From the NCBI GenBank assembly GCA_030280995.1, contig JASXTE010000017.1, positions 17,972,998 through 18,036,997 of the forward strand: a stretch of DNA of 64,000 bases, read 5' to 3'. Of this stretch, positions 5,343 through 38,228 are shown piece after piece. Origin of the DNA: Hemileia vastatrix (taxonomy: Eukaryota; Basidiomycota; Pucciniomycetes; Pucciniales; Zaghouaniaceae). The notes beneath the pieces are model-generated. The model searched no databases. It saw nothing but the letters and a program-made list of their open reading frames with translations, and had not been told where the DNA came from. The position numbers and the translations under genes were made by a program. Each line of letters begins with the position of its first letter. The first letter of the stretch is position 1.

Positions 5343-5363
5343 AAAAAAACAATAAAAAAAATG

Positions 5364-11531: not shown

Positions 11532-12218
11532 ACTAGTGGGAAGATTTATAATTTAATTTTTATTTTATAAAAAAATAATAAAAGTTAGTCAATAATTGCT
11601 CCAAATAAAAATTTTTTAATTAATTAAATTATAGAAAAAATAATTTTCAATATAAAGTAATAATTAAAAAATTAATTTTTTCAAAAAAATGGATTGCAAG
11701 GTTAAATTGGGAATAACAATTAAGTTAATTTCAACCAATTAATTACCAATATAAAATATGGCAATATATTTGGGACCAAGCACAATGTACTTTCAAGTCA
11801 ACCAAAATTAACAATAATTAATAATAATAAAAAATTAAATTAATAATTCAATTTGTATTAATAAAAAATGTCAATTCTTCTAGGACTAAGAGGATTTAAC
11901 ACTCTATAATGGTCAACTAGGAAAAAAAAAATTTTAAAAATTGAACACTTACACTCAGTGAATCAGCAATTAAGCCACAATCACTGTTATTGCAATAAAA
12001 ATATAGTAATATGAGTGAGAGGCGCAAAGGTGAACTTACTATAGTGATCAAAAAATCACTTCAAAATAATATAAAAATTAATATTATATAAACCTAAGAT
12101 GTTGAACCCAAGTTCGAAACACAGTCGCGGCAAAAGTTTTGTTTTTGCTAGGTGGTCCGTGCGTTTTGTCGTTCGTGGCCAGGCTCGATTGTTGTCGTCG
12201 TTTGGAAAGATCCCCAGT
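11532..12218 (-). other. Leader of Ty3 element 1
   Basis: AT-rich untranslated leader between the 5' LTR and gag. Directly after the LTR, the minus strand reads ACTGGGGATCTTTCC; element 2 has the related ACTTGGGGGCCTTTAC at the same place, so this is the candidate primer-binding site. It lacks the usual TGG start, so priming is uncertain. Confidence 0.5.
12111..12132 (+). other. tRNA T-arm-like sequence in the leader
   Basis: Reads AGTTCGAAACACAGTCGCGG then CA, resembling the T loop and 3' acceptor of a tRNA. It lies antisense to the element. Element 2 has an equivalent at 34,988-35,009. No complete tRNA can be folded here. Confidence 0.4.
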
Positions 12219-13357
12219 TGTCGGTCAGTCGTCTAGAAGAGGTAAGAAAAAGAGGAGAAAAAGGAGGAGAGAAGGAGGAGGACAAGGGAAAATAAAGAAA
12301 TAAACCAAAAAAATATATATTTAATTTATTTGAGAGGGAAACAACGGTGAGCAACTTTGAGAGGTGACAAAAACTTAGATTTTATTAACAATAATATTAT
12401 TAAATGTAAGGGTTCTGCGCAGCAAACAATTTTAATTACTATCAGACTTAAAGCAACCTTTGATTTGTTGTATAGAATTTAAATTAGATTTGTATTACTA
12501 ATAAAAAAAATATAAATGTAATAAATTGGTTATTTAATTTGTTGAGTGTGTAATAAGTGATGATGCTACAGGGGATTATCCAAGGCCCTTTTATAGGCAA
12601 TGGGTCCTCTGAAGCGCTACTATCTTTGTAAATACAATGATTAGAATGGAATAAAACAAATATATCAAAAGAGTAAATGAAACATAACAATATAGAGAAA
12701 AACATGAAACAAATAATTAAAACCCCAATTAAGAATCCAATTTCCCCGCCATTAATTCCCAAATCAGTAAGTGACAATAGTGAATAACTAAACAAGATTG
12801 GAAACATAGGAACTATGAGAAATATAATTCCAAACAGATGGTACATTCTGATTAAAGGACATTTTAAGTGAAACAAAAAATAATTTGATGCAACAAAACA
12901 AACAATTAATCTCAATTTAGTCCAAATTAATTTATTTGTTTTTTCTAAAACAATTAAGGGTCAAAAGAAGCGTCATTAATTATTGTTTAGTATCATATGA
13001 GAGGTATTATTTAATATATAAATTTAAGTAATTAATTTAAATATATTATAAATCAATTTTACACTTGTAATTATAATATATGTTTTTCAATTAATTAAAT
13101 ATAAATTTATAATTATTAAATACATAAAAATGCGCCATTATTTGTAGAATATATTATATTATGCTCAATTTAATTGTATATAAAAATATATATAACCAAT
13201 AAATTTAATGTAACACTTGTATATAATAAAATTCTTATATAATTTCATTATGCAATAAAATATTAAGTTATATTCATTAAATACAAGTCTTACCCACTCT
13301 TTAAGGTTTTATAATTTATATATCATTTACTGGACTCCTGGAATAGCCTGGCTGACA
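12219..13357 (-). repeat. 5' LTR of Ty3 element 1
   Basis: 1,139 bp, near identical to 4,192-5,330, ending in GACA followed by the AAGGG duplication. It carries TATAAAAG on the minus strand at 12,588-12,595. Confidence 0.93.
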
Positions 13358-18009: not shown

Positions 18010-18964
18010 ACTATTCACAAAGATTGTTTTAAGCAGCCAGGTTTAAAAGCACAACAAAAGTAAGCTTCTTGCCTACAACAACCTGACTACAGAATTTCAG
18101 CTGAATGCACTGATGAATATATATGAATAGCAGAAAGCACATCACTAGTAACACTTAAAATATTTATCAGTAATATCATCAAGCTGTACAAATGAGAATA
18201 CTTACATGAGCCAAATGTGAGAGTAAAAAATTATTTTGATGGAATACAAAGAATTTGGTTTCCCTGGCTGTTTGGGATCAATCAACAGTATGCACTGGGA
18301 GTGAAAAAACTGCCCAGAAGCATTAGCTGGTCGGTTTCAAGGAGAAAAAGGAACTCCAACTTTGGTAATAGAGGGTTTAGCAAGCAAAGACTTACAATTT
18401 TGGAATTTATTCTTTGGTTCTCCTGTGGCCCTGAATGATATCAACTTCTTCCATTGTAGCCACTTGTTTGAAAAATTACTTGCAGGAACACAAGATGAGG
18501 CTAGGTGCAAAATAAAAAAACATAGGTACACCTGTGAATATTATCTTGCAGACAGAATCTCTCTTTCATGGTCAACACTTTTCAATTCAGTTCTCTACCC
18601 TCAGGATGAAGCCAGCCAGTACTATGCTAAGCAACAAAAAGCAACCTGCAATGATATTGAATGAGCCTTTGGAGTATTAACATCTTGACAGGAAACCCCT
18701 AAGAAGCCATGTCATCTATGGAGGATCAGAAAATTAAAGACTTTAATGATGTGTTGTGTAATTTTGCACAACATGGTTACAGAAGATAAATCTACTTTCA
18801 ATCCTCACCTTTTTCAAGAATACCCTTTGGACCAGAATGAAAAAATAAATTTGACACAATTACTTAAAAACTTTCATGATCCAACTCTTTTCAATTTTTT
18901 AACAGCATATATGAAAAGGAACCAGCAACTACATAATAGAGGGTTTCTGTTATGGAAAATCTGA
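18010..18964 (+). pseudogene. PIF/Harbinger DDE transposase, decayed copy
   Basis: Family sequence can be followed in shifting frames: DEYI and ESTSLVTLKIF, GSINSMHWE (normally GSID, so the first catalytic Asp is Asn), LVIEGLASKDLQFW, FFGSPVALNDIN, YYLADRISLSWST (second Asp kept), then an AFGVL motif preceded by a stop where the catalytic Glu region lies, and CVILHNMVTEDKS near the C-terminus. At least one frameshift near 18,350 and stops at about 18,660-18,690. These motifs are typical of the Harbinger transposases that target TWA sites. It differs in sequence from the transposase at 36,668. Confidence 0.8.
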
Positions 18965-20257
18965 AATTATGTAAGTTTTTAGTTCCAAAACACACTAGCC
19001 CCAACACTAATGGATTTCAAAAGAGAAATAATTCACTTTTTCACTCAAATCCACAGTTTCTGAACCAAAAGTACTGATTTCACAATTACTTTCCATTTAA
19101 CTGATTTTTCAGAATCATCACATTCATACACACAATTCCCCAACACAAAATTTTATAACTCGAAACATTGTACAACATTTAAATTTTTATACCATATAAG
19201 AGTCATGCCTTCCTGGCTCTCAAATTATGATAAATTATGTCAAGCAATTCCTCATAGAATGCTAGTATATAGGTATGATTTAATGGTTAAATTTAGTAGC
19301 CAGACTAATTAAAATTATATAATTTATGATTAAACCTCAGGTAAAGATTTAATATACTTTTATACTCAATCATTAACTGACAATATTTTGATTGTTGTGT
19401 GCTGGTGGTAGAAAATAGACTAATAAAATATGTTTTAGCTAGTATAAAGATAAAATAAATTTATAAAGGCTTTAAAATATATTTTTATATAATAATAAAT
19501 TTAATTAGTTATTTTTTTAATGTGTAGTAATTTAATGATGTCCAATAACCAGCCAAATCCCCCTTTACTTATACCACAATCCACTGGAGTGCACAGACCT
19601 TCCTTCCAGATGATTCTCCTGCTCTCCCTGGAAATTAAAGCACTTTGAGGGCTCATCACCTCCCCATGGATTCCAATTCAAGAATTTTCATCACATAGAC
19701 CTCCAGTTTGGATGCACCATCACAATTAATGATATCATACTAATATACCATAAACAGAGAAAAGTGTGAACCATGAAGGAAACAATCAAAATGGCTCATC
19801 CAAAGAGAATAATATGAATAAAAAACATATAAGGGAAAAAAGTAATTTTCCAAGCTTCCAGTAACATTCAAAAGCCTCCACATTGACCCAGTGACCTTGA
19901 TCCAACCCATAAACTCATGATAATTCATTGAAGGAAGCAGATTAAGTTGTCCAAACTGAATATATGTGTGTGCAGGCATGGAGGATCCATTGAATACTTG
20001 CATATGGACTAAAATAAGAAGTATAGTCATGCATATATTCTATTTAGAGGGATAAACCTGCATATAGTCCTATTTATGTGTAGTATAACTGCATATTTCA
20101 ATGAATATGGAGGGTATACATGCATATGAGCTTATTTATGTGTCAACTTACTTGATATTAGTTAAAATAAGCATATTATGACAAAACAAGCACATTAATA
20201 AGTATAATGGGGCTATGTATAAACTACTTCAACTCATATAAGTCCATATATCAAGGG
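18965..20257. other. Intergenic, with a short tandem repeat
   Basis: AT-rich. Positions 20,022-20,140 hold about four 30-bp units built on (A/C)TGCATAT followed by CTATTTATGTG-like sequence. An open frame at 19,740-20,030 (minus) shows no motif and is not called. Confidence 0.45.
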
Positions 20258-21099: not shown

Positions 21100-23056
21100 C
21101 ATACTGTTTTATCAAAAGTATTATCTGGGTCCAAATTTTTTCAACAGGTTTTTAAGATCAGAGATCTCATTTTCAGGAATCCACTGGTAAAACTCACTGG
21201 ATTTATTTTTAAACCTTAGTAGATACTCAACACCATTTTTTTTAGTAAGTTTTCTCTTTTAAAGTATCTTATCAATTTCTAATTTTTCAAATATTTCTCA
21301 GGTTGCTGTTTATGCCTTCCTGATCTTCTTTGAAATAGAGCAGTATCATTAAAATGGTATGACTTTATAAGAGATATAGGGAATACTGGAACTTTTCTAT
21401 CATATGTTGCATATAATTTAAGTTCAACAGCATTGATGCCAACTATTTATTTCTAAAAATGATCCAATGAATAGATCCTCCAAATTAATGTTACCATAAA
21501 ATTGAAATGTAGTGTTGAAATAGAGACTTCATCATCCTCCTAGAACAATTCTTCTTTATAGGCTTTATCCAAACTTTCCTTCTCATACTCAAATGCCTTA
21601 TTAATACATTCTTGAGCATGCATTATGCATAATTTTTGCATTTTAAGAAAAGATTTCTTACCAGGATGGATATCATATCTTGGTAAATTATTGAGAGCTT
21701 TAGCAAGCGTATTAGGTACATATCCCAACCATAACTCAAATGGCTTTTTTCCAGTGACCTAATACACTTTACTATTGTATGAAACTTCCAGACCAAAAAT
21801 AAGAGCCACCCAATCATGTGTAAACTTAAAATTTTCTTTAAAGTCATGACCAAAAGCACAATATCTTCTTATCATATTTTCTAGAGTTTTTATCATTCTC
21901 TCTTCCAACCCATCAGTTTGTGGATGGTGTGCTGTTGAAAGTTTTAATTAACATCCTGACACATCCAGAAGTGATATCCAGAACTCAGAAGTAAATTTTG
22001 GATCCCTTTCAGAAACTATTGCTTTTGGGAAAACAGCTATATTTAATAGTTCTGTCAACCATAAGAAAGCTAAGTCCTTAGCAGACACCTCTCTATGAGT
22101 AGGAGTAAGTTAACACATTCTTTTAAACCTATCCGCAACTACCCAGAAGGAGTTATAACTCTTATTTCCTGCTATTAGAAATGCAGTTACAATATCCATG
22201 TTAACAAATTCCCATGGAGCCTTTAGGCTCTCAATTTTCTGTAATAAAACTGCTCTTTTCCCTGTAAATCTTTTAAAATTTTGGCAAGAATCACATGTTT
22301 TAACATATTTCTTAACATCATCAGAAATTTTACCCAACCAAGCTGTGATTTTTACTCTGTTTAATGTTTTATAATAGTCAAAATGACCTGCCAATATTTC
22401 ATCATGACATATACTTAACATTAACTCCTTATTTTCAGGGGAAATTACAATTACATTACTTACTTTTTTCCTGTAATATGTAAAACCACCCTCATTGGAA
22501 ATTTTTCCTTTCTCCATTGCTTCTCTGTATTTCTGTGGATTTTTTTATTAAAGCACTCATTGAAGCATTAGAAGGATCATTTAATATTGTATTAAGTTTA
22601 CTCAATTAAGGATCTGAAGCATAGTTATCAAGTATTGATTGCATGAATCTATCCTCAATGTCTACAATATAAATGCTCAAGATGTTAATAATCTCTGTTT
22701 CAGGAAGATAAGCAGTATTATCATCATTATTAGGCAGAGGTAATCTAGATAAGAAATATACATTAGAGTGTAAATTTCCTGCTCTATGGGTAATAGTCAC
22801 CCTTCCTCTGTACTCTTGTACAGCTAATTGCCATCTAAAAATGTGCCTTTTAGGAGTTTCCATGTTCAAGAGTGACTTAACTGCACTACAGTCAGTAATC
22901 AACTGACATTTTTGGTCCTAAATGTAATAATTTAGCTTTTCAAGAACCTATATCACTTCTAAAAACTCAAGTTGAATAGAATAATATTTCAATTCACTGT
23001 TTCTTAGAGTTCTTGAAGTAGAACAGATTACTACCACTGAAATTTTTACCTCAATA
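21100..23056 (-). pseudogene. pol: Ty3 element 3 pol, C-terminal two thirds, decayed
   Basis: Read on the minus strand: RNase H end (LITDCSAVKSLLNMETPKRH), integrase zinc-binding region (CHDEILAGHFDYYKTLNRVK, then CDSCQNFKRFTGK), integrase core pieces (SDRDPKF-like region near 21,990 with a stop nearby) and chromodomain (about 21,130-21,260). Open pieces are 22,606-22,902, 22,110-22,517, 21,623-21,859 and 21,540-21,728, separated by stops and shifts. Upstream RT, protease and gag are absent; the copy ends at 23,056, where the Harbinger element begins. Confidence 0.8.
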
Positions 23057-23090
23057 GGGGGTGTCAGTTCTGGAAAATCCGCACTTAACT
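23057..23090. repeat. Left terminal inverted repeat of the Harbinger element
   Basis: GGGGGTGTCAGTTCTGGAAA followed by ATCCGCACTTA. It pairs with 38,195-38,228 with one or two mismatches. Confidence 0.8.
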
Positions 23091-23407
23091 TAAGTGCCAA
23101 TTTCAACCCAAATCAACACTCACAAACCAGCACTTAACTTTTGAAAATAAGTCACTTATTTCACAAATGGGTGTCAGTTCTGAACTCAAATCAGCACCTT
23201 TTTTTCTCACAACCACATGTTGGCCACATCATCACTTCCTTACCCATACAATCCCTGTCACATGTGACACACTGATCTCCATCCCCTCCTCAATTCTCAC
23301 TGATATTTGAAACATTTTATTTTGACATTTTAACTAGGCATGTTTTTTCCCTTGTTTTTTTTCAACCTCTTTCTTAATCTCTTTTCTTGTACCATACCAG
23401 TTTCATA

Positions 23408-24725
23408 ATGCCTCCCCAAAAATACAACACTCAAAAGGCATCTCAAAAAAATTATTCATCACAAAATTCTCCTTGTAATGCTAGCCCCTCACCTGAGAAA
23501 CCAAAGTCTGGACAGCTAAAAAAGGAAGATTATCTTGTCATCATCTACTTCCTCAAAATAAAATCAAATTATGATGCATGTTTTGGATGTGAGAGGTCCA
23601 CCTTCATCAAAGTTAATTTGCTTCTTGTTGATGGCAAATGAAGTAAAGAAAAAAACAAAAGGGAGAAATTACATCACTCCTAAGCAAATGAAGGAGAGGT
23701 TCAAAAGTTCTAAATAAAAATATAAAAAGGCTCATTTTGCTTTCACTTCAACTGGCTTTGGTGTCGATGACAAGGATTTAGAGATTGGGATTACTACTTT
23801 TTCCGAAAAGCTGAATGTCATTTATCCTTACTATGAGGAAATGGATATTCTTTTTGGTTCCCAAGTTGATGTCAACCCTTTTTTTCTACACAATACTACC
23901 AAGGATATACCCTCTGGATCCAAACCTTCCTATAATCCTCCTGAAACACCTTTACTTGAAGGAGATCAATCCCCTGAAGCCTCTCACCATAGTTCAGCCA
24001 AAGATGATCCTGACTTTTAAGAAGAACAATTAGTTCGGAGCAGATCTGAGTCCTCAGAGCCTGATGTATGTTTACTTTCTCTTTTTTCTTAAATTCTTCT
24101 CTAAATTTATCTTTATTTCTTTCTTTTATTATCCCCTCCAACTCCTACTCAAACTCTAATTCCAAAAAAGATTATCAATCCCACAAATGAGAATCATGCT
24201 TTGGAAGATGCTTTAGATGAACTTCCTGAATCCTCTAGCTCAAATTCAAAACTAAAGCGTCGAGCCTTAACATCAATGAGCTTGAACCATATTTTAAAAC
24301 GTGGTAATAATTCATCCAACTCTTTGGCTTCCCTTGATTTTTATTTTGAGAAAAAAGATATAAGTAAGAATAAGTCTCTATATATCTTATTCAATAACTT
24401 ATTTTTTTCATTTCTCTTTTCATAGAAAAATTCTGTATTGCATAAATGCCCTTGACTTTGAGAAGATGAAATTTGATCATATTCTAATGAAATATCAAAG
24501 GGCCTTAGATTTAGAGGAATTTTTTTTTTGCTTCCATCTAACTTTGAAAAGGCCGGATTTGAGGTTCATCTTTGCTCAGAGAAATCAAAAGACTGTGAAT
24601 TTCAAAGAGAAATGGCAAGTCATGAACTTGAAAAGCAAGAAAATTAAAAAAAAGAATTTTTTACAGAATGTATAAAAAATGGCCAGACTTATGAGTACAT
24701 TAAAAAATTATTTGACTTTTTTAAT
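23408..24725 (+). pseudogene. Harbinger Myb/SANT-like DNA-binding protein
   Basis: Exon 1 starts at ATG 23,408 (MPPQKYNTQKASQ) and carries LKKEDYLVIIYFLKIKSNYD, a pattern seen in Myb/SANT-like accessory proteins of Harbinger elements. A frameshift near 23,600-23,640 moves to another frame (TPKQMKERFKSSK, stop, KYKKAHFAFTSTGFGVDD, then YYEEMDILFGSQVDVNPFF). Introns are likely at 24,066-about 24,140 and from GTAAGAATAAG at about 24,357 to TTTTCATAG at about 24,425. The last exon encodes a charged helical tail (KEFFTECIKNGQTYEYIKKL). In the family this protein brings the transposase to DNA and the nucleus. At least one frameshift and two stops mark it as broken. Confidence 0.75.
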
Positions 24726-24829
24726 TGATTAATTGTTATTTCAGGTAATGTGACCTTTTTTCACATTTATAGTCTTTTAAAAAAATTTTTTGTACATTTT
24801 TTGATTATTTTTATGCCTGAATTGTGATT

Positions 24830-25440
24830 GAGTCACGTGCTGAAAAGATGCAGCATCTTTTCCATCATATGACTTTATTTCAACTTCTGTAGTTCAAGTT
24901 GTCAGCTAGACCTCATTAATTTCTTTCAAATTTACTGGTGCAATGCAAAACTTTCAAGTGAGCAGAAAAGACACTGCGTCTTTTCAGCATGTGACCTGTA
25001 TTTTCTCAACACTAAATTCTTTTTTTCTTCTTTTTGATTGCCCATACAAGCTTCTAACTGAAGGTTTATCTGTCTATTCTACCTCTTTAATTTCTTTCAA
25101 AATTACTTGTGCAATGCAAAACTTTCAAGTGAGCAGAAAAGACGCTGTGTCTTTTCAGCATGTGACCTGTTGTTTATTAACACTACTTTCTGTTTTTCTC
25201 CTTTTCAATTGACCATACAAGATGCTAACACAAGTTTTATCTGACTATTCTTGATTATTGAACAAGATTTTGGTGAAATCATTGAAAATGATGCAGTGTG
25301 ATGTCAGTATTACATTTCTTTTACTTAGTTTCACCAAAAATTTTACTTTCCTGTAGTCCATCTGACATTTTGAACCAGAGAAATGGAAATAAAGTCATGC
25401 AACAGAAAAGACGCTGCATCTTTTCAGCACATGACTACAA
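24830..25440. repeat. Four copies of a near-palindrome, two within a 171-bp tandem repeat
   Basis: Core GAAAAGATGCAGCATCTTTTC at 24,840-24,860 and related copies near 24,966, 25,136 and 25,403 (for example GAAAAGACGCTGCATCTTTT), each followed by AGCAYRTGAC. The two middle copies lie in a direct repeat of about 171 bp (starting near 24,918 and 25,089). This falls between the Myb and oxygenase genes. Confidence 0.75.
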
Positions 25441-25744
25441 TCATATTTCAAGCTTAAAAATAATTAAAAAAAAGTAAGAAAAAGAAAAAAAATTTTAAAT
25501 TAAAAAAATACCAAAAAAACTACATTCTTGACCACTGTGGCTCTTGAAGAATCTTGAGGGCGGTATCTGGCCCATAACTAGCAACTTTTTATCCCTCTAA
25601 TTGAGCCATACCACTACCAGGCCTAGGCAAAACTTAATGAATAAAAATAAAGTCATGTAAAGAGAGATCACACAGCATCATTTTTTTCTTTGAGACATAA
25701 AGTTTTCAAGCAAGAATTTTTTTTGCAAGTTGCTTGCAAATGCA

Positions 25745-26125
25745 AGCAACTTGTGCCAAGTAGTTTCCCCAGAAGAAGCAAGTCTTCTGTGGCAACCATG
25801 TAATTTTTTTGCCCCAGAATAAGCAAGTCTGCTGGGGCAACCATGTAATTATTTTGACCCAGCAGAAGTGAGTCTTCTGGGGCAACTATGTAATTTTTTT
25901 GCCCCAGCAGACTTGTCTCTGCTGGGGCAAGCTTAAATGGGGCTAACAAATTTTTTTTCCAAAAGTAAAAAGTTGCCCCAGAAGAAGCAAGTCTTCTGCA
26001 GCCAAAAAAAAAAAATTAAAAAAAAATTCTAAAAAAAATGAAGCCCCAGCAGAAGGGAGTTTGCTAGGACAAAAAAAGCAAAAAAAAAATTGCCTAAAAA
26101 AAACTGCTGGGGAAACAAAAAAAAT
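25745..26125. repeat. Hairpin-forming minisatellite
   Basis: About seven units built on GCCCCAGCAGAAGCAAGTCT followed by TCTGGGGCA, separated by CCATGTAATTTTTTT-type spacers. One unit (25,900-25,927) is a perfect inverted repeat, GCCCCAGCAGA to TCTGCTGGGGC. A minus strand open frame here simply translates the repeat. Confidence 0.7.
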
Positions 26126-26248
26126 TTTAAAAATGGGGCTTTAACAAAATCTGAAGGCATAAAAGGTGGGCCTTTTCCAGGCACTCTGAAGAATCTTTCC
26201 TAAACCCAACTATCACCAAATTGTTTCAAATTCCTTTCCATAATTTTT

Positions 26249-26565
26249 TAAGATACTCTGCATGTTGGTTTAATTAGTTGTAGACCTTATTCTATAATAG
26301 AAATTTGATGACAATTTTATTGTTTTTTTCTTTTCTTTTATTTCATTTTTCTTTTTCTTTTATTTTTATTTTTTTCTTTATTTCAGAATTATATCAAACC
26401 CAACCAGGAAAAATTTGTATTGTTTTTAAATACAAACTTTTCTTGAGATACTGAGCATGTTGGTTTAATTAATTGTAGACCTTATGCCATCATAAAACTT
26501 TGCTGATTTTTTTTTTGGTTTTTTCTTTTCTTTTCTATATAATTGAATTTTTTTTAAATTTCAGA
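26249..26565 (+). repeat. Duplicated segment upstream of the oxygenase gene
   Basis: GATACTCTGCATGTTGGTTT at 26,250 recurs about 194 bp later as GATACTGAGCATGTTGGTTT at 26,444. Both copies run through GTAGACCTTAT and a T-rich tract to TTTCAGAA, which resembles an intron acceptor. Confidence 0.55.
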
Positions 26566-27349
26566 ACTAGATTATCTAAATGGGTAGACAAAGGCACAAT
26601 GGTTGACCAAAAAAAGCTTCTCAAATTCAAATTGCTGGTGAAATTTGGAAGGATTATGTTGGTTCTGACTTTGAAAAGGTTTGGTATAAGGAGTATACAC
26701 TTCTGGATGTATTTGAAACAAATGAGCCAATACCCTCATTATGTCCTAAATCACACAACTCAGGCACCTACCAAATTGCACATGTCTCAGAAAGGCCTTC
26801 AGTTATTCAACCCAAAAATCAAAATATTCATCCTGTTATAGTGAAGTCATTTGAACTAAAGGGATTGGCTGAACTTGGTAAACTGGAGGATGCTAAGATA
26901 TACTGAAGGTACATGAAATATTTAAGACACCAGATCAAGAATAATGGTGCTCATCTGGAAGCAGGGGGAGAGGGGAATATGTTTGCTGCTGGAGAATGGT
27001 TAGGGATTCAACATGTATTTGATATAAGTAAGTTAAAAATTTTAAATTTCCACATTCAAAATCTGAATCATGCTTCAGGTCTATACCAAAATTTGAAAAT
27101 AGATGATGGGGAAGTGAGGGAGACACTTGGATTTATATTTTCATTTCATTCTTATCTATTTAAACTATTAGAAAAGAAGTACTATGAGGAATATTTGAAG
27201 CTTGGAGCTGAAATAGACCTTCCTTGTTATGATGGGGTGGAGGGTTTTGGGGGAAATCTAACATGGACTTCAGATGGATTTTCAAATTCTCCCCATAAGG
27301 ATTTGGACAACAGTGAACTTAGTTTAGGTGTCTTTTTTCCAAAAAATTT
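26566..27349 (+). pseudogene. Tet/JBP-like 2OG-Fe(II) dioxygenase, 5' part
   Basis: The long frame shows ELGKLEDAKIY, a stop, then RYMKYLRHQIKNNGAHLEAG, and a C-terminal block YEEYLKLGAEIDLPCYDG, NLTWTSDGFSNSPHKDLDNS, ELSLGVFF. HKD fits the HxD iron-binding motif, set in a TSDGFxNxPHxDxD context that I know from Tet-like oxygenase domain proteins in rust and other basidiomycete genomes. Such enzymes oxidise 5-methylcytosine or related bases; the substrate here is unknown. Upstream exons run through 26,566-26,880 in another frame. The gene is cut at 27,349 by a Ty3 LTR and continues at 36,166. Frameshifts and a TGA show it is now inactive. Confidence 0.75.
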
Positions 27350-28150
27350 TGTCGAAGGGTCCTGATGGTCTAGAAGGTTCTTACAAAGGTCCAACAGGGT
27401 GAATAGGTGGATTTTTGGGGTTTCAAAGTCAAAGTATGTATAATTTTCCTTTTATTTTATTTACTCAATTTAAAGAGGTAAAAGTTTTTATAATTAGTAT
27501 TATTATTAATGATTAGATTTACGTGGTAGTAAAGACTAAAACAATAAATGATAGTAATTATTATTTTTTGTAATAGTGGTGTAATAAAATAAGTAAGTAA
27601 TGAATGAATGTTCCAAAACAACAAAAAAGGGGGGCCTTTTATAGGCAAATGAGAGACAAAGCACAGACTTAAAATTCTATATACAGGAGTATGAGAGAAG
27701 AAGAAAGAAAATTCCAAAAAGACATTTCAAATATTAAGATTGTTCTAGAAAGAACGCATTCAAAATCTGTATTTACAGAATATGTCAGAAATAAATTGTT
27801 TTATTTAAAATTACAGTAAGTGTCAATTTTAAATAAGTAATTTGAATTTTTTTTATATATTTATTTTTATATCAATATTAAGTATTTATTTCCCTTAACA
27901 TGTCATTGAGCACGGTGTTAGAAATAAAAATAATAAAATTAAAAATAAAATACAAATAAAAATAAAAATAAAAATAAAAATATAAAGGACATTTATTATT
28001 AAATTTAGTTTTTTACTAACTTTAATTTTTTGTAACTAGTTAATTTATTACAAGTAAGTTTAAAGTAAATATATAAAAAATAAAAAGGCTTGACTTCATC
28101 CAGTAAGTAATTAATTATTTTACTGGGTAAGTCTAGCAGCCTGGCTGACA
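27350..28150 (-). repeat. 3' LTR of Ty3 element 2
   Basis: TGTCGAAGGGTCC to CTGGCTGACA on the + strand, TATAAAAG on the minus strand at 27,636-27,643, with a short (AAATA)n run near 27,950-27,985. It aligns with 35,152-36,165 except for the MITE and small indels. Confidence 0.9.
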
Positions 28151-28186
28151 CTCTCTCACTCAAAAAAAAAAACAATAAAAAAAATG

Positions 28187-31100
28187 CTATGATTTTTTCA
28201 TTTTATATTTCTTTAGTAGAGTAGGAAGATTAGATATCTCCTTTCCAGGTATCCAATAATCATATTCAGAAGATTTATTCTTGAATCTCAATAAGTATTC
28301 AGTACCTTTTTCAGCAGTAACTATTCTGTCATTTAGAATCTTATCAATTTCTGCTGTCTCAGTTATTTCATTATGGGTCTTTCTTGGTCTTCCCCTCCTT
28401 TTTGGAAATAAATCACTATTAAATGTATAAGGTTTCAAAAGAGATATTGGAAAAATAGGATGTTTTCTGTGATATGGAGAATACAAAATAACTTCAACTG
28501 CATTATCAACAACCATTTTTCTGACAACAAACAGACCTACAAATGGGTCTTTTACTTTGTTATTACCTTGTAAATTGAAGTGGACTGTAGAAATTAATAC
28601 TTCATCACCCTTTTTAAAATTTTATTCTTTATGGGATTTGTCCCATCTCTTCTTCTCATATTCAAATGATTTTTCAATACATTTTTGAGCATGACTTCAG
28701 CAAAGTTGTTGCATTTGAAAAAAAAAATTTACACCAGGATGTAAATCCAATTTTGGTATTTTATTATTGAGATTTTTGGCAGGAGTTTTTGGAACATATC
28801 CAAGCCAGAGCTCAAAAGGCTTTCTTTGAGTAACAGAATGAACAGTGCTATTATAAGCAAATTCCAACCCAGGAAGTAAGGTAACCCAATCATGAGTGAA
28901 TCTGTTGTTGTCTTTATACTCAAGGCCAAAGGAACAATACCTTCTTATCATGTCATCCAAGGTTTGAATAATTCTTTTAGCTAATCCATCTATTTGGGGG
29001 TGATGTGCAGTAGAAAGTTTCAGATCCCAACCACAAACATCCATATGAGACATCCAGAATTCAGAAGTAAATTTAGGGTCTCTGTCAGAGATTATGGCTT
29101 TAGGAAAACTAGAAGTATTAAACATATGAAACCACCATAAGAAAGCTAATTATTTAGTGGAAACATCCTTGTGAGTAGGGATAAATTTACACATTTTTGT
29201 GAATCTGTCCACAATAACCCAACAAGAGTTATAACTGTCTTTCACAGCAATGGGTGGCCCTGTTACAAAGTCGATGTTTATTATCTGCCATGGTGCATCA
29301 GTAGGTTCAATATGTTGCATTAATCCAGCTCTTTTACCAGTCAATATTTTTGATTTTTGGCAAGAATCACAGGATTCAACATATAGTTTGGTGTCTTCAG
29401 ACATATTAACCCACCAAGCAGTGTTTTTAATTCTGATCATTGTTTTTTCCAGATCAAAATGTCCAGCCAATATGTCATCATGACAAATTTTCAATATTAT
29501 TTCTTTCATAGAAGGAGGAATAAAAATAACATTGCTCAACTTTCTTCTATAATATAGATATCCCTCATCAATTGAAAATTTACCTTTTTCCAAAGCCTTC
29601 TGGTACTTTGGTGGAAGGGTTTTAATTAATGCTTGTATTGAAGCATTTTTTGGAACATTTAATATGGTGCATAACTTTTTTAAGTCAGTGTCCTTATCAT
29701 ATGAATCCAGAATAAGCTATAATAGCTCTTCCTCCACATCAACCACATATATCCCATGAATATGGATAATTTCATCCTCAGGATCATATGCAGGATTTGA
29801 ATAATTATTTGGTAAAGGTAACCTTGATAACATATCCACATTTGATTGAAAATTACCAGCCCTATGAATTATTGTCATTCTTCCTCTGTATTTTTGAACA
29901 GATAACTGCCATCTGAACATATGTCTGTTAGGTGTTTTCAAGTTTGAGAGGGATTTAACTGCACTGCAGTCATTGACAAGTTCAAATCTCTGGTCATCCA
30001 GGTAATAATGTAGCTTCTCTAAAGCCCACACTACTGCTAAACACTCAAGTTGAGTGGCACCATATTTCAATTCACTATTTCTCAAGGTTCTTGAAATATA
30101 ACAAATTAATACTTCTGATACATTATCATTCATAACTTGTTTCTGATGTAGGGCAGCACCAAGACCAATAAAACTTGCATCAGTGTATAAAACAAATGGT
30201 TGATTAAAGTCAGGTAAAGTAAGAATTGGTGCTGACATCAAACAATGTTTCATAGTGTCAAAAGCTCTTTTTCTTTCACTATTCTAGACACAAGCAAAAT
30301 CTTTCCTAGTCAATTGAGTAAGGGGTAATTCTATGACTTGATAATTTTTAATATACTGTCTTTAGTATCCACACATTCCCAAAAAACTCTGGATCTCTCT
30401 AACTGTAGTAGGAGCTTTAACCTGTTTTATGGCTGCCACTTTGTTTTGGTCAATACATATCTGTAACCCTGAGTTAACATAACCAAGTACTTTTAGGAAT
30501 GGAAACCAAATTTGCATTTCTTTAAAGCAAGTGTCATATTTATCTCATCCATCTTATGGAACACTTTATACAGGTGGTTAAGATGGTCCTCAAATGTTTT
30601 AGAGAATATAATGATATCATCAATATAAACCATAAGCCATCCTTCAATTATTTCTTGATGGAATGTGTTATCCATAACTTTTTGAAAAACTAAAGGGGCA
30701 TTTTTAGGCCCAAATTGCATCCTAAAATACTTATAAATACCCATATGAGTAGAAATCATCAGAAAATTCTGAGAATTCTTCTAAAAAGGTACCTGGTGAT
30801 ATCCCTTGTTACCATCCAAACAGCTTATATATTTAGCACCTTGTAGGGTAGCATGTATAGAGCTAATTCTGGGTAAAGGATAGATATCATCAACATTATA
30901 AGTGTTTAATGCTCTACAATCACCACATAACTTGGCTTTATCTTTCTCATAAGAAATTAGGACAGGTGAGATAATACAATATTTAGGTGTTTCAACTACC
31001 TTTTCAATAATATTCATTTTTAAAAGGGTAGAGATATTGTCTTCAATATCTTTCCTCTTTGTGGGAGAAGCAGGATAAGGCTTCTTCTTCAAACTAGGTG

Positions 31101-31870
31101 GTATTTCAGTTAATGGGAAAGATAATGAAAGTTTCATTTCTTCTTTAACCAATCCTAATTCATGTGACCCATGAGCAAAGGCCATAGGAAAATATTTTAT
31201 CGATTTAATGATGGAATCTTTATCCTCACCAGAAATTTGTTCTTCAAAAGAAGCATTGTCAATTTCAGACACAAGGGCAGGCATTTATTTTTTAAATCTT
31301 CTTTTATATTGAACTACAGAATTACATGTGTTCAATTCTGGTGTTAATAATTTTCTGGGGGAGGAAATCTTAAATTTTCTCTTCCCATTCATCCCCATTG
31401 TGAAGCATTGGTTTGAAGGATCTAATTTTATGCCATGCTTGGAAAAATATCATTTCCTACAATAAACCAACTGCTTAAATTATCATTTTTCATGACAACA
31501 AAATCACATATAGCTCTTACAAAATAAGGGTTATATTTGAAAAAAACTGTGGCTTTGTATTTACCAATGGGGGACAAAACAGAGCCATAACCTCTCCAAT
31601 TTTCAGAAATGATAGGCATAAGTTTTGATTTTTAATCTTGGTCCACTGAAGCAAGTGCTTTCTCAGATACTACACTTCCTCCAGCTGCAGAATCCAAAAC
31701 AGCCTCAATGTTGGTTCCATTGATCAAGACTGGTGCCTTGAGAGGGGCAATAACAATTGAGCTATCCTCAAGGTTTTTTATGATCTCAGAATACTCTACT
31801 GTAGATAAATCATTATTTTCAATATTAATAGTATTTAAATAATGAATATCCTCTTCCAGCATCAAAACTT
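28187..31870 (-). pseudogene. pol: Pol of Ty3 element 2, multiple stops
   Basis: Order from 5' (high coordinate): protease near 31,690 with DSA in place of DSG; RT pieces 30,781-31,284 and 30,493-30,759 with YIDD intact; RNase H 29,717-30,253; integrase zinc finger 29,150-29,593; integrase core 28,697-29,125 (SDRDPKFTSEF, HHPQIDGLAKR, where the catalytic Glu region reads AKR instead of AER); chromodomain 28,187-28,516. The pieces are colinear with element 1 and separated by nonsense codons and shifts. The altered protease Gly and integrase Glu alone would disable it. Confidence 0.88.
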
Positions 31871-31959
31871 CCTACTGAGATTCATATGAAATAATGCTGG
31901 CACAATCACTTGAAGTATCATCCAGTGCTATTGTGTCCTCAGCATGTTCCTCAGTTTTC

Positions 31960-34223
31960 TCAACAAGATTGATCTTCTTGTCAAAAACATGGCCTTTCTG
32001 CCAAGGCTTTCTGCACTTGAAGCAAGTGTTTATTGCATACTTTTTATGTGCAACAGGGGAAGAAGGTTTACCAACCTTTTACAGAGTTTTCTGTTGGTAA
32101 TTGGAGGGTTTCTCCAAAGGAGTTCTAGTGATGAATCTTCTGGAATCATACTTGATGTTTAGAAGGATCTCATTACAAGTATTAATGAAAGAAGAAGGTT
32201 CTCTGGAGAACTCATTCCTAGCAACTATCAAGTCTCTCAAAGACATGGGTAATTTATAGAGGATCCTGTCCTTCCATAACTCAAACTTCATATTCAGGTC
32301 CATTGCCCTCAAGATTTTTACAAGTTTCATTAGAAACTCAAAAGGTTTATCAGTAGAAGAGCTATATCTGGTTTCTTCATACTGCCTTTGTTGAGCTATC
32401 CTAAACTTGGAGCCACCAAATTGTTCTTTAATTAATTATTTCCAATCTTCCCATGAGTAGTCATTCTTATCCAAGAGAACAGATTCATACCAAATTAGGG
32501 CCACATTGGTAAATAAAGAATTTAATTTGGACACAATTTCCTCATCTGGGATTTTGTAAGATTTTTTTAGATTATCAATCCTGCAAATGAATTGCTGCCA
32601 ATCAGAGTAAGAGTCACCATCAAATGTTGGATACTGGTCAATTTTTGGCCAATTCTTTTGATTTGAAGTAGTCTCCTTATTACAAGCTTGTTTCTGAGTG
32701 AAAAGGAGCTGTAACTTCTCCAATTGGGCAATAATTTTATTGTTTAATCCTTCTGTGGATGATCCAGGTACATCATCAATTTTTGATGGAAACTCAGTGA
32801 TATCAACAGGCATTTCTGGAACTAATTTCACTTTGGAGGAACTAGGAACAGGTAAAATTGGGATATCCTGCACCATATGTTCTTTCAAAGAAATGTCAGA
32901 AAATTTTTGATCATGAAACAATGAATTTAATTTCTCTTCAATGGTTTTTAATCTGGTTTTCACTCTTGGAAGACTAGATAAACTCTCATTGATAGTTGCA
33001 TAATATAACTGGTTTTTATTTTGAAAAGATGAATAATGGTCACTCAATCTTTTCAAGTTCAACTTATGTCCCTCTAGCTCCTGGCAACAGATGGACACAG
33101 TATCTTGTAACTTAGACAAATCATTTTTGATATTTTTCCATAAAACAACTTTCTTTTCATGAGTTACTTTGTAATTAAATAAATCATCAGAAACTCTCTG
33201 TAATCCACTCCTCAATGATTGGTAACCCTTTTCAGTTAACAAACAATTAAATTTCTGAGTCAATTGCATGTTGTTCATAATATGATTTTTTTTAGTAATA
33301 ATATCCCTCAAATATTCATCATTAATTTTTGCCACATCTAGAGTGTTTCTCAAAAGGGAAACAGAATAACTTTTCAGACTCTCATAAAACTCAGGATCAA
33401 GTGTCTCATCAATAACAGGCATATCAGGATTAATCATTGAAGTAGCAATAAAAACAAAAGGATTAGATACATTAGAATATTGAGCAATATGTCTACTACT
33501 ATCAGCCTCTACTGGTCTCACAGTTTCATCTCCTCTTCCAGAATTACCAGAAGTAACTGAATCAGCAACAAGAATTGGTACTTGAGATTCATTAGAGGGG
33601 CTTACCAAGGCTTGGGCAATGATTGAATGTGTTTGTTTTTTCTCTTTCTTCATCCTTGATAAGGGTGAGGAGGTGTGGGGTTGAACTGATTGGTTCTTGA
33701 CAGACCTGCCAGAGGTACTTGAGGTTGTTGTTGCTGGGACAGATAATCCCACTGGGTGTTCAACCAACCCCACTTCCACTTTGACACTTCCACCTTTTCT
33801 TGTTTCTGGGGAGCCAATTGTGGATGGTCCCTGGGGGGAGGAGGTCTTCTCTTCTCTTGAAGGAAGGACTCTATCTCTCTTACCTTTTCTTCTAGAGAGT
33901 CCGTTTTTGACCTCAGCTTGAGGTTTTCTGTCCTCAATTCCTTGATGTGAGTGGAGAGATTTTTGACTTGCTGAGTTAAGGGCATCTTTTTTATTTTGAA
34001 GCCTTTTGGAAGCTCATCTGGGGGGTTGATAGAAGGCTTTTGGTCCAGAGCAGTTGTCTCCACTAATATTTCCACCTCCTGCATTTCTAAATCATGATTG
34101 GTCCAGTAATTGATTAATTTGAGCCATTTTTGTAGTCAAAGGAGAACTCACAGAAAAAGCTTCATCATAATCAATTAAGTCAAGTTCCTCATCACGGCCA
34201 GCAGAAGCACCTTGATCAGTCAT
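31960..34223 (-). pseudogene. gag: Gag of Ty3 element 2 with conserved intron
   Basis: Exon 1 34,223-34,152 (MTDQGASAGRDEELDLIDYD, 24 codons), a 73-nt intron, then exon 2 from 34,078 in another frame (EVEILVETTALDQ, coiled coil RTENLKLRSKTDSLEEKV), ending at a TGA at 33,650. The protein continues in a third stretch at 33,660-32,436, with long coiled coils and the Gag domain (DQYPTFDGDSYSDWQQF), and pieces at 32,079-32,330. A zinc knuckle follows near 31,980-32,040. Gag passes into pol without a frameshift; the element 1 stop is absent here, but a TAG occurs just before pol, near 31,876. Confidence 0.8.
34079..34151 (-). other. Spliceosomal intron in gag of element 2
   Basis: 73 nt, GTGAGTTCTCC to ATGCAG. 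Phase 0, same position and same flanking amino-acid context as the 64-nt intron of element 1. Confidence 0.7.
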
Positions 34224-35151
34224 AGTTTAAATTAACCTGAACTGAGAGAAAGAAATATTAAGAATTAATTTGTTATTATTTTTGCTTTATTTAAAGAAAA
34301 ATAAGAGAAAAAAATATTCTACTATATAATTAATTATCAGGATTTTGCAATCAAATGGAATAATTTAAAATATAATGTTTTTCAGGACAAAAATAAACTG
34401 AAATAATAATCACAATTTTTATTAATTTAAGATAATTTTATAACCAGGATTAAAATAAATCAACTGAAATAATAAAATTAATTTTTAATTATTAATTTAA
34501 TTACCAGGACTTAATTGTCAACTGAGAATAATTTCAATTACCAGGACTTAATTTCAAATGAAATAATCTAATTATCAGGACTTATTGTCAACTGAAATAA
34601 TTTTTTATATAATCAATTTTAATTAATTTTTAATACTAATTTATTGCCAGGACAATTTTTCAACTGAAACAATAATATATTATTTTAATTTATCAGGACA
34701 AAGGTCAACTGAAATAAAAGAAAATATAATTTAATTAATTTGATTTTTTATAAAACTTCTATGAATATGAACAATATAGTTCTATCTTGGTAAACTAGGA
34801 AAAAAAATATTTTATTTACCAGGCACCTCCCCCTGTAAAATGAGAAAGTTAATGCCACTTACAGAGTGCTGAATAAAAGATATACCTAGACTATGAAAAG
34901 TGCAAAGTGACCCATGAATAGTAATTAATATATTTACCACAAATATATAAGACTATTGCCAATATATGAGCCTAAACTTAGGATTGCGGTTCAATTCCTG
35001 TTTGCAGCAAAAAATTAAGTCACGTGGTTTATGACATTCGTGCTTTTTGTTGTTCACCCGTCCCTACAGGTACCTCAATTTCGATGGTCCCTTGGTCACT
35101 GGCCTCAAGATATTGATGCGCCGTTGATGATTTGTAAAGGCCCCCAAGTTT
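34224..35151 (-). other. Leader of Ty3 element 2
   Basis: AT-rich with recurring CCAGGACTTA/TCAACTGAAATAA motifs (about ten copies, 34,380-34,740). A tRNA T-arm-like stretch GGTTCAATTCC (34,988-34,998) to GCAGCA (35,009) lies on the + strand. Next to the LTR the minus strand reads ACTTGGGGGCCTTTAC, the candidate primer-binding site. Confidence 0.5.
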
Positions 35152-36165
35152 TGAAGGGTCCTGATGGTCTAGAAGGTTCTTACAGAGGTCCAACAGGGTG
35201 AATAGGTGGATTTTTGGGGTTTCAAAGTCAAAGTATGTATAATTTTCCTTTTATTTTATTTACTCAATTTAAAGAGGTAAAAGTTTTTATAATTAGTATT
35301 ATTATTAATGATTAGATTTATGTTGTAGTAAAGAATAAAACAATAAATGATAGTAATAGTTATTTGTTTGTAATAGTGGTGTAATAAAATAAGTAAGTAA
35401 TGAATGAATGTTCCAAAACAACAAAAAAGGGGAGGCCTTTTATAGGCAAATGAGAGAAAAAGCACGGACTTAAAATTCTATATACAGGAGTATGAGAGAA
35501 GAAGAAAGAAAATTCCAAGAAGACATTTCAAATATTAAGATTTTTCTAGAAAGAAAGTGTTCAAAATCTGTATTTACAGAATATGTCAGAAATAAGATGT
35601 TTTATTTAAAATTACAGTAAGTGTCAATTTTAAATAAGTAATTTGAATTTTTTGTATATATTTGTTTTTATTTAAATATTAATATTTATTTAATATTAAG
35701 TATTTATTTCTCTTAGCCTGTCATTAGGGGGTATCAAATTAGAAATTTGTAATTATTTAAAAGGTATTTCACAACACAAAAAGAAAGCCACAAACTTGAA
35801 ATTAATTCTCAGTAAAAAGGTGTTTGGGGGGCACAATATGGCATATTTTAAAAAATAATTATGGTTGATTTGGTGGAAACAAAACGTATTTTGAAATGGA
35901 AGATTTTTAACTTTGATAATACCTATTGAGCATGGTGTTAGAAATAAAAATAATAAAATTAAAATTAAAATACAAATAAAAATATAAAGGACATTTATTA
36001 TTAAATTTAATTATTTACTAACTTTACTTTTTTGTAACTAGTTAATTTATTATAAGTAAGTTTAAAGTAAATATATTAAAATTAATAATATATAAGAAAT
36101 AAAATGCTGTGGCTTCATCCAGTAAATAATTAATTATTTTACTGGGTAAGTCTAGCAGCCTGGCT
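35152..36165 (-). repeat. 5' LTR of Ty3 element 2, interrupted by a MITE
   Basis: Aligns with 27,350-28,150 but contains an extra 199-bp block plus a duplicated ATT at 35,723-35,927. TATAAAAG on the minus strand at 35,437-35,444. The outer end lacks the terminal GACA. Confidence 0.88.
35726..35924. mobile_element. 199-bp MITE in the LTR of element 2
   Basis: Ends AGGGGGTATCAAA and, reverse complemented, AGGTATTATCAAA. ATT is duplicated on both sides. The other LTR of the same element has the uninterrupted site (GTCATTGAGCAC), a direct empty-site comparison. Superfamily not assigned. Confidence 0.8.
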
Positions 36166-36580
36166 TTGAACTTTAGATGGACTTTTTGATTTATGCTCAT
36201 GGGACAGCAATAGGCCAAGGCATAATGGAGGTCATTTTGTATTTCCTGAATTGAAATACATGGTTGTGTTTGAAAAGTGTGATGGAATATGGGTTGTTAT
36301 ATGGCCAGCTAATATGCTATACCATCGAACAACACCTGTCAAAGAGTATGGAAATTTTTCAAGGCTTGGGTCATCCATCCAGATAAGTAAAAAATTAGCC
36401 AATTCTATTAAAAATTTAAGAATGTTAATTCCAAATATACATATGTCGGACTATATTTCTATGAAAGAAAAAGAAAAGTTGGAATTTGTGCATGATAACT
36501 TTCTTTCATCAATTTTGGATGATAATACTATAAACATGGAACAAGTGTATATTATTACCAAAAAGCATGTAAATCATTAG
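36166..36580 (+). pseudogene. Tet/JBP-like 2OG-Fe(II) dioxygenase, 3' part
   Basis: Continuation of the oxygenase split at 27,349. Reads LDGLFDLCSWDSNRPRHNGG, then GHFVFPELKYMVVFEKCDGI, WVVIWPANMLYHRTTP, and a conserved tail RLGSSIQISKKLANSI. The FPE block and the distal His in MLYHRTTP match the second half of the double-stranded beta-helix, which supplies the third iron ligand; a following basic residue usually binds 2-oxoglutarate. It ends 88 nt before the convergent transposase gene. The frame at the junction with the 5' part is off by one, probably from a small indel. Confidence 0.75.
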
Positions 36581-36667
36581 AAATGTATATTTAGTAAATG
36601 ATTTTGATAAATTATAATGTGATTACAAAGTCTAAAGAGAAGAAAAAAGTTTAAGAATAAATCATAG

Positions 36668-37927
36668 CTAATACTCCCATTGTGCTAGTGTGATTGGAAG
36701 AATTTTCGCCCTTTTGCTAGTGGTTTGAGAAGTTGTAGTGTTGGATATAGCTGGAGGTGTTTCAACTTCTTCATCTTCATACAAGTCTACCCATTGATCT
36801 TTTATGTCAGCAAGTAGGATGTGAAGTATTGTGCAACACAGAATCCAGTTGATGACAGCCTTCATTTTGGAAATATTTCTAAGAGGACTTCTTAATTCCC
36901 TTAAAATGGAAAAATGATCTATCAGGATTCCAATAGAATGTTCAATATGGACTCTTGACTTTTCCAGATGATTGTTGAACTTGACATTTTGACTGTCTTC
37001 TGAAGCTGATCCACAAAATGCAGGAAGAACATATTTTCCATTCACATAAGCTGAATCAGCCAGAAGATGATGATCTTCATCAAAAAAAATTTCAGGCTCT
37101 TTTGAGATTTGCATTCTTTGAAAGACATAGGAATCATTAAATGATCCAGGATAGCCAGTGAAGAAAGATATAAATTTTTTGTTTACATCACAAATAAGCT
37201 GAACAGAAATTGAATATCTATAGAGAAGATATAGTTGCTTGTCTTAGTATGAAAAATAATGTAAAGAATTAAAAATAATCTACCTCATTTTATGGTCAAA
37301 GTAATTTTTTCCAGCATGAGCAGGTTTCTGACTTAAAGGAATAGTAGTACCATCAACAAAACCAATACATCCTGGGAAGCCCTCTGCTTGCATAACCTGA
37401 GATGATTCAAGTTGCTCTTCTTTTATTGGCCAGGAGAGAAGTTAAGATTCCAATGAGTTGGTAGCAGTGATGCAACATTTTTTATAAGTGTTAACAGAAC
37501 CATAGCCTAAATCAAAGAAATTTTCAAAACATTTAAAGGCAGCTCCATTACCATTGGAACCCAAACAACATAGTGTGATGTCCAATTGAATTGATGGTTC
37601 ATGTTGTGTCTTTTGAGAATTATTGTGAAAAACTGGGTGATCCTCAATAATATGAAGTAATTTAAGGAAAAATTCCTGAGAAGTCCTGAAAAGCTGTCTA
37701 AAAATGGGTACAGACAGGTTTAGTAGTACTTGGATAGTGTACTTGGTGGTATGAAATACTTGAGGCTTTCTTGGAAGAAGGTAAAATTTCTTGGTCATTT
37801 TAGATAAAAAAAGAAAATCTTCTTCAAGGTCAGAATCAGATTTTCAATCAGATTCCAAGAGCAGAGCAATAGCTATGACAGTCATTTCTTGATGTAGCTT
37901 ATCACAATTTGAGAGTGAGGAAGGCAT
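36668..37927 (-). pseudogene. PIF/Harbinger DDE transposase with intron
   Basis: Start ATG at 37,927 (MPSSLSNCDKLHQEMTVIAI), about 400 codons once the 66-nt intron (37,283-37,218, GTAGAT to CTATAG, phase 2) is removed, the usual family length. Catalytic triad visible: D in GFVDGTTIPLSQKP, D in HLLADSAYVNGKY, E in VHIEHSIGILIDHF. Conserved TGYPGSFNDSYVF lies between. Only two in-frame stops (TGA near 37,844 and TAA at 37,442) break it, so decay is recent or mild. It lies convergent to the oxygenase gene and 300 bp inside the right inverted repeat. Confidence 0.85.
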
Positions 37928-38194
37928 GACTCTTATATGGTAGAAAAATGAAGATGATGCACAATGCTAAGAGATATGAAGTGTTATGCTGCAAAGTGCT
38001 GTGCATGAATGAGAAGTGTTATGCTGCAGAGTGCTGCATATAAATGTGATGATGCTGACAAATCAGTGAGATGTGAGGAATGGTGAAACCAGCAATTTTG
38101 GTTGAGGAAGTGCATATTTGAGTGAAATAAGTGACTTATTTCACTTTTGAAATCCACCAGTTTTGGGGCTAGCATGTTTCAAAAATCTGCACTT

Positions 38195-38228
38195 AGATAA
38201 GTGCAGATTTTCCAGAACTGACACCCCC
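38195..38228. repeat. Right terminal inverted repeat of the Harbinger element
   Basis: TAAGTGCAGATTTTCCAGAA followed by CTGACACCCCC, reverse complement of the left end, flanked by TA. Confidence 0.8.

What the first reader, a model, noticed from the sequence alone, without database searches (positions are those of the whole stretch)
23057..38228. A PIF/Harbinger transposon that carries a Tet/JBP-like 2OG-Fe(II) dioxygenase gene
Between one pair of inverted repeats (GGGGGTGTCAGTTCTGGAAA) lie a Myb/SANT-like gene, a gene with PHKDLD (HxD) and MLYHRTTP (distal His) in the Tet-like oxygenase layout, and a DDE transposase gene with an intron. From the literature I recall basidiomycete TET/JBP expansions being linked to KDZ transposons; I do not know of a Harbinger element with this cargo. 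A base-modifying enzyme mobilised with a transposase and its DNA-binding partner could protect or mark element copies. Seen: termini, motifs and order. Known: Harbinger two-gene structure and Tet-like motifs. Inferred: that the oxygenase is cargo and not a pre-existing target gene.
Basis: partly seen in the sequence, partly recalled or inferred. Interest (0 to 1): 0.88.

Follow-up and report, generated by a model that had tools for sequence, protein, structure and literature searches.

The report
Jumping gene carrying Tet-like DNA oxidiser
This is one old, broken copy, in what is likely a rust-fungus genome, of a jumping-gene family that carries a Tet-like oxygenase gene predicted to strip silencing marks from DNA; that kind of element was described in print in 2025, but here its ends occur thousands of times and the oxygenase appears to have been swapped for an unrelated one within the same family.

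Summary
Perfect 20-nt inverted repeats at 23057 and 38228 enclose a Myb-like gene, a Tet-like 2OG oxygenase gene (PF20515, both pieces) split by a Ty3 element, and a DDE_Tnp_4 transposase gene. The window's own genome (747.6 Mb) holds 12,148 matches to the repeat against 18 for the reversed control. In 28 of the 29 best-matching other loci fetched with this oxygenase, the same transposase lies convergent beside it. So the oxygenase is cargo, not a target gene.

As a kind it is not new. Kojima 2025 (PMC12730594) describes TET-carrying Harbinger elements with TA target sites ("PHISTA") in rusts; 36 of 39 distinct ends here are flanked by TA.

Not seen in the parts of that paper I read: sister copies with the same ends, transposase (85% identical) and Myb-like gene carry a different Tet-like gene (24% identical), reversed, in the same slot. 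Its tag occurs 4,379 times against 160 for the window's type. Against a protective role: young copies without the oxygenase exist, and oxygenase-bearing copies examined are not richer in CpG. This copy is dead: stops in its genes, plus the Ty3 insert.

The parts
23057..38228 (.). Whole element between terminal inverted repeats, with a TA dinucleotide outside each end
   Evidence: in fetched loci of the own genome 36 of 39 distinct ends are flanked by TA
23057..23094 (+). Left terminal inverted repeat (first 20 nt exact); a 13-nt piece recurs inside at 23170
38191..38228 (-). Right terminal inverted repeat
23408..24425 (+). Gene 1, diverged Myb/SANT-like DNA-binding protein (weak match); broken here by a frame change and stops; 3' end uncertain
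   Evidence: in six frames of other copies PF13837 is the best match at E 0.003-0.7, below cut-off
26580..27349 (+). 5' part of the type-1 Tet-like 2OG-Fe(II) oxygenase gene, with HxD at 27288-27311; two in-frame stops (26604, 26904)
   Evidence: relatives in 29 other loci
27350..36169 (-). Ty3-type LTR retrotransposon inserted in the oxygenase gene; LTRs about 27354-28146 and 35153-36165, 95.7% identical over 788 aligned bases, coding frames broken
   Evidence: exact ends inferred from the ends of the related element at 4192-13357
36170..36580 (+). 3' part of the type-1 oxygenase gene, with distal His (MLYHRTTP) and the Arg region NFSRLGSS
   Evidence: weak match to CMD1, a 5-methylcytosine-modifying enzyme, E 0.015
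36671..37927 (-). DDE transposase gene (PIF/Harbinger type) with an intron-like gap near 37217-37285; D at 37343-37360, D at 37046-37066, E at 36923-36955; frame interrupted by stops at 37442 and 37844
18939..19248 (+). End of a second, related element (71% identical to the right end, including the transposase start), outside the finding

Best explanation
The interval is a broken copy of an abundant TA-target PIF/Harbinger-type DNA transposon that carries a Tet-like oxygenase gene as cargo between its Myb-like gene and its transposase gene, and the oxygenase likely helps the family by oxidising 5-methylcytosine that would silence its genes. Shown here: the termini, gene order, other copies, the number of repeats, and an oxygenase slot filled by two very different Tet-like genes. 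Inferred: the transposase, likely with the Myb-like partner, cuts at the TIRs and inserts at TA; the oxygenase would act in trans on family copies while they are young. The likely history is that an older type-1 lineage (this copy) went quiet, and a relative with a replaced, reversed type-2 oxygenase then spread to high copy number. This copy later took a Ty3 insertion and decayed.
For: TIRs and TA flanks (36 of 39 distinct ends). PF20515 and PF13359. Own-genome repeat count 6,072 + 6,076 against 11 + 7 in the reversed control. 150 scored matches to the type-1 oxygenase, the window's own included, the cap out of 4,025 first-look candidates; in 28 of the 29 next-best loci (L022-L050) the transposase lies convergent beside it. 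Two of four longer type-1 regions are complete from TIR to TIR, 6.1 and 6.6 kb, with all three genes and no Ty3. Type-2 oxygenase in L011, L015 and L018, PF20515 E 1.5e-30 and 2.9e-30 in two full-length frames; 9 of 9 further type-2 loci examined match the L015 element over 90-100% of their length. Arms of type-1 and type-2 elements align (74-76% and 84-86%) but the middle does not; transposase 85%, gene 1 66%, oxygenase 24% identical. Tag counts 4,379 (type 2), 160 (type 1), 2,996 (transposase), 0 in each reversed control. Of the 150 scored type-2 hits 118 have no stop, of the 150 type-1 hits 42 (my hand counts). Kojima 2025 reports the same kind.
Against: No biochemical or methylation data. 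Young copies without an oxygenase exist: L012, and L065, 99% identical to L012 over 2.2 kb. CpG observed/expected is 0.06-0.18 in five type-1 stretches (two of them partial or with flank), 0.21-0.24 in three type-2 copies and 0.37 in the oxygenase-less L012, so bearing the gene does not go with CpG retention in this small set; age is a confounder. In the window the element (0.09) does not differ from the two Ty3 elements pooled (p 0.68) and is slightly lower than the rest of the window (p 0.04). The window copy's target site is not rebuilt: the left flank is Ty3 pol up to the TIR, and no continuation was found on the right. The type-2 tag also hits short derivatives with a truncated oxygenase relic (L013, L014, L016, L017), so 4,379 overstates complete genes. 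One of 29 type-1 loci (L024) lacks the transposase.
Confidence: 0.72

Rival explanations
1. The oxygenase is a passenger: it was captured with other DNA, is mobilised with the element, and does nothing for it.
For: Young copies lacking it (L012, L065), short derivatives with only a truncated relic, type-1 pairwise dN/dS median 0.67 over 34 pieces and 0.78 over the 17 open ones, and no CpG difference.
Against: Type-2 genes are stop-free in 118 of the 150 scored hits (hand count) with lower dN/dS (median 0.39 among 12 open pieces; one locus counted twice). Two very different Tet-like genes in one slot, and the same gene class in seven transposon lineages of rusts (Kojima 2025), are hard to explain by chance capture.
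Confidence: 0.2
2. The oxygenase makes a modified base (such as a hydroxymethyl or glyceryl base) that marks or shields element DNA, instead of demethylating it.
For: The only plausible solved relative of the type-1 3' piece is CMD1, which makes glyceryl-methylcytosine (weak, E 0.015). Kojima 2025 leaves this open for the PU type.
Against: No partner enzyme for further modification was recognised in the element; no substrate data.
Confidence: 0.1
3. The oxygenase was a pre-existing gene at the target site, and the TIR element only inserted beside or around it.
For: The window copy's right flank does not continue the Ty3 of its left flank, so local rearrangement is possible.
Against: The same gene sits at the same place between the same partners in other copies across the genome.
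Confidence: 0.02

Closest known systems
TET+ PHISTA / Harbinger elements of rust fungi (Kojima 2025, PMC12730594)
   Same: DDE transposase of Harbinger type, TA target sites, Tet/JBP-like oxygenase, a third protein; the paper lists them in five Puccinia species and Austropuccinia psidii.
   Different: The paper says no third protein has a Myb/SANT domain; here the third protein's best Pfam match is Myb_DNA-bind_4, though below cut-off. In the parts I read I did not see an in-family exchange of oxygenase with reversed orientation, or copy numbers in the thousands. The supplement (families, sequences) was not open to me, so whether this very family is listed is unknown.
Nuwa / canonical PIF/Harbinger
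   Same: DDE_Tnp_4 transposase plus (probably) a Myb-like second gene.
   Different: 2-bp TA target sites instead of 3 bp; carries an oxygenase.
KDZ elements with TET/JBP (Kyakuja, Dileera, Zisupton) of basidiomycetes
   Same: Transposon-borne Tet/JBP oxygenase.
   Different: Different transposase group and 7-8 bp target sites (from Kojima 2025); no comparison was run here.

Membership tests
TET+ PHISTA (Kojima 2025) | 2-bp TA target site duplication | tested here: met
   36 of 39 distinct TIR ends in fetched loci are flanked by TA (TG 2, TT 1); TA frequency in the window 0.081. For the window copy alone the joined site is not rebuilt.
TET+ PHISTA (Kojima 2025) | Harbinger-type DDE transposase | tested here: met
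   PF13359 E 6e-21; relatives include a Puccinia striiformis protein, 56% identity over 54% of the query
TET+ PHISTA (Kojima 2025) | Tet/JBP-like oxygenase with HxD and distal His | tested here: met
TET+ PHISTA (Kojima 2025) | third protein without a Myb/SANT domain | tested here: inconclusive
   PF13837 is the best match in 6 of 6 gene-1 frames of other copies scanned, E 0.003-0.7, all below cut-off; no match for the window's own pieces
TET+ PHISTA (Kojima 2025) | transposase groups with the PHISTA clade in a tree; oxygenase of PU type | not tested
canonical PIF/Harbinger (Nuwa etc.) | 3-bp target site duplication | tested here: not met
   left and right flanks of the window copy agree on TA only; ends elsewhere share TA
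TET/JBP 5mC dioxygenase | oxidation of 5-methylcytosine | not testable with these tools
   sequence only

The most novel reading that the evidence does not exclude
Cargo turnover as an anti-silencing arms race: in one Harbinger family two very different Tet-like oxygenases have occupied the same slot in turn, in opposite orientation, and the replacement was followed by a burst to thousands of copies, as if a fresh oxygenase let the family escape host methylation again.
Probability: 0.3. Interest if true: 0.75.

Novelty: new member of a known kind. Interest (0 to 1): 0.45.

Why it matters
It gives an independent, whole-genome check of a class of transposon published in late 2025, and shows that such a family can have thousands of copies in one genome. 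The exchange of the oxygenase while transposase and Myb-like gene stay the same offers a natural experiment: type-1, type-2 and oxygenase-less copies in one genome, on which methylation could be compared to ask whether the enzyme helps its own element.

Tried and rejected
Rejected: the target-gene reading; canonical 3-bp Harbinger. First thought that the organism was Austropuccinia psidii from GC 33.6% against 33.8% in PMC8063080 (passages); the assembly here is 747.6 Mb against 1.02 Gb there, so the species stays open and rust is inferred. First thought that short 3.7-kb copies keep an intact oxygenase for their own benefit; it is a truncated relic.

Led nowhere: protein search with the oxygenase 5' piece (33 candidates, none at E <= 0.001; only proteins of 0.55-1.75 times its length were candidates) and with the gene-1 piece (1 candidate, none); solved-structure searches with the oxygenase 5' piece, transposase, full type-2 oxygenase and gene 1 (nothing credible); AlphaFold on two single pieces, mean pLDDT 56 and 36, not used; TIR in viral contigs, 0; family PF20515 over the own genome (not completed).

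Papers: PMC12730594 outline, parts 1-5 of 7, figure legends and passages; PMC8063080, PMC12210899, PMC12774611 passages only. Papers in the search answers were otherwise seen as listings only. What Iyer et al. 2014 says is known to me through Kojima's text and recall; it is not held.
Full report
Observation. The two copies of GGGGGTGTCAGTTCTGGAAA at 23057 and 38228 are exact and inverted, with none in 100 shuffles, and the arms are 95% complementary over 38 nt. TA flanks both ends. Between them lie gene 1 (23408-24425, +), an oxygenase gene (26580-27349 and 36170-36580, +) and a transposase gene (36671-37927, -). Pfam places both oxygenase pieces, scanned apart, in PF20515 Tet-like 2OG-Fe(II) oxygenase (E 8.8e-8 and 2.9e-8, successive parts of the profile) and the transposase in DDE_Tnp_4 (E 6e-21). 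HxD, distal His and the three acidic transposase positions are present (the catalytic roles are recalled from the families). The 3' piece has a weak match to CMD1, a 5-methylcytosine-modifying enzyme (E 0.015).

State of this copy. It is dead. The oxygenase has two in-frame stops and a Ty3-type retrotransposon inside the catalytic core; the transposase frame has two stops; gene 1 changes frame and has a stop. The Ty3's LTRs are 95.7% identical over 788 aligned bases. The left flank is an older Ty3 pol fragment that runs up to the TIR, but its continuation was not found on the right, so a later deletion or rearrangement at the right flank is likely.

Other copies. In the genome that holds the window (747.6 Mb, 791 contigs, unnamed) the repeat with up to 3 mismatches occurs 6,072 + 6,076 times against 11 + 7 for the reversed pattern. 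Of 39 distinct repeat ends in fetched loci, 36 are flanked by TA, 2 by TG, 1 by TT. The window's oxygenase (type 1, 3' piece) has 150 scored matches, itself included; that is the cap, out of 4,025 first-look candidates. In 28 of the 29 next-best loci, fetched as L022-L050 (the exception is L024), the same transposase lies on the opposite strand beside it, convergent as in the window. Of four longer type-1 regions, two (L051, L053) are complete from TIR to TIR, 6.1 and 6.6 kb, with gene 1, oxygenase and transposase in the window's order and no Ty3; L054 shows all three genes and one TIR, L052 all three genes and no recognisable TIR in the range fetched. Hence the oxygenase is cargo.

A second oxygenase in the same slot. 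Three complete copies found through the TIR (L011, L015, L018) carry no type-1 oxygenase but another Tet-like gene in the opposite orientation; two full-length open frames, in L063 and L064, match PF20515 at E 1.5e-30 and 2.9e-30. Type-1 and type-2 elements align over the first 1.7 kb (74-76%) and the last 1.5 kb (84-86%) but not in the middle; the transposases are 85% identical, gene 1 66%, the oxygenases 24%. If the oxygenases had descended with the transposase they should be about as similar, so the middle module was replaced (inference; which came first is also inferred, from decay and divergence). Nine of nine further type-2 loci examined lie in the same element. A type-2 tag occurs 4,379 times, a type-1 tag 160 times, a transposase tag 2,996 times, each with 0 in the reversed control. 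The type-2 count includes short derivatives with a truncated relic (L013, L014, L016, L017). Of 21 exact type-2 tags on contig C2, 13 have an exact transposase tag upstream on the same strand within 4.5 kb; 88 exact transposase tags lie on that contig, so many transposase-bearing copies have no exact type-2 tag. Two such copies were fetched: L066 has a partial type-2 gene, L065 none. L012 and L065 show that some young copies lack the oxygenase altogether.

Does the oxygenase protect its element? CpG observed/expected is 0.09 in the window copy against 0.07 and 0.13 in two Ty3 elements of the window (no difference, p 0.68 against both pooled; slightly lower than the rest of the window, p 0.04). 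Across fetched copies it is 0.06-0.18 for five type-1 stretches (window copy included; two partial), 0.21-0.24 for three type-2 copies, 0.37 for oxygenase-less L012 and 0.21-0.35 for four short copies. This follows age better than gene content. In Austropuccinia psidii, younger transposon families keep more CpG and are more methylated (PMC12774611, passages), so CpG loss is expected with age. The result does not exclude a trans-acting enzyme that helps only while copies are young.

Gene 1. Kojima states that none of the third proteins has a Myb/SANT domain. The window's broken pieces match nothing, but in the six frames from other copies that were scanned the best Pfam match is Myb_DNA-bind_4 each time (E 0.0032, 0.0039, 0.007, 0.013, 0.041, 0.7; cut-off 27 bits, best 18.3). 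These are related sequences, not independent tests. I read it as a probable diverged Myb/SANT protein, unproven.

Comparison with the known. Kojima 2025 (PMC12730594; parts 1-5 of 7 and legends read) describes fifteen TET+ Harbinger families with TA target sites in six rust species, names the lineage PHISTA, and proposes escape from methylation-based silencing. The present element meets the tested features of that kind, apart from the open Myb/SANT question. A full-text search for the word PHISTA with Harbinger or Pucciniales found the word in this paper only, of 8 listed. Two points were not seen in the parts read: exchange of the oxygenase in one TIR family with reversed orientation, and copy numbers in the thousands. 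The paper does report PHISTA families in two oxygenase clusters (P2 and P6) and movement of oxygenase genes between superfamilies, so the exchange is a close-up of a known tendency.

Host. The one named relative of the transposase is from Puccinia striiformis, GC of the window is 33.6% and CpG is strongly depleted. A rust fungus is inferred; the species is not known.

Selection. Pairwise dN/dS has medians of 0.39 among 12 open type-2 pieces, 0.67 among 34 type-1 pieces and 0.78 among the 17 open type-1 pieces; some loci overlap and are counted twice, and pairs are not independent, so this is only a hint that type 2 has been under more constraint. Of the 150 scored hits each, 118 type-2 and 42 type-1 pieces have no stop (hand counts; the scored hits are the best of many candidates, so not a random sample).

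Noticed in passing
18305-18937 and 18939-19248: A Plant_tran (PF04827) transposase gene is cut at 18938 by the end of a second, 71%-identical PHISTA-like element, which itself stops matching near 19248; a Ty3 whose pol (21154-23056) ends at the finding's left TIR follows. It looks like a nested stack whose right halves are missing.
   Followed up: partly
4192-13357: Ty3-type element with LTRs 99.8% identical and a long open pol frame (5364-9134, minus), apparently young; AAGGG stands at both ends.
   Followed up: partly
25768-26072: Repeated 28-45-nt units with inverted symmetry (CCCAGCAGAAG...CTGGGGCAA) inside the element between gene 1 and the oxygenase; possible regulatory or hairpin DNA.
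   Followed up: no
L013, L014, L016, L017: Short derivatives of about 3.7 kb, 95-97% identical, with the 5' transposase part and a truncated oxygenase relic, seemingly non-autonomous copies (L016 is cut by the range fetched).
   Followed up: partly
L065: A 3.7-kb copy, 99% identical to L012 over 2.2 kb, keeps the transposase but has lost the oxygenase and most of gene 1.
   Followed up: no
40226-40723: SNF2-related domain (PF00176, E 2.7e-14) on the minus strand just right of the element, possibly part of a host gene.
   Followed up: no
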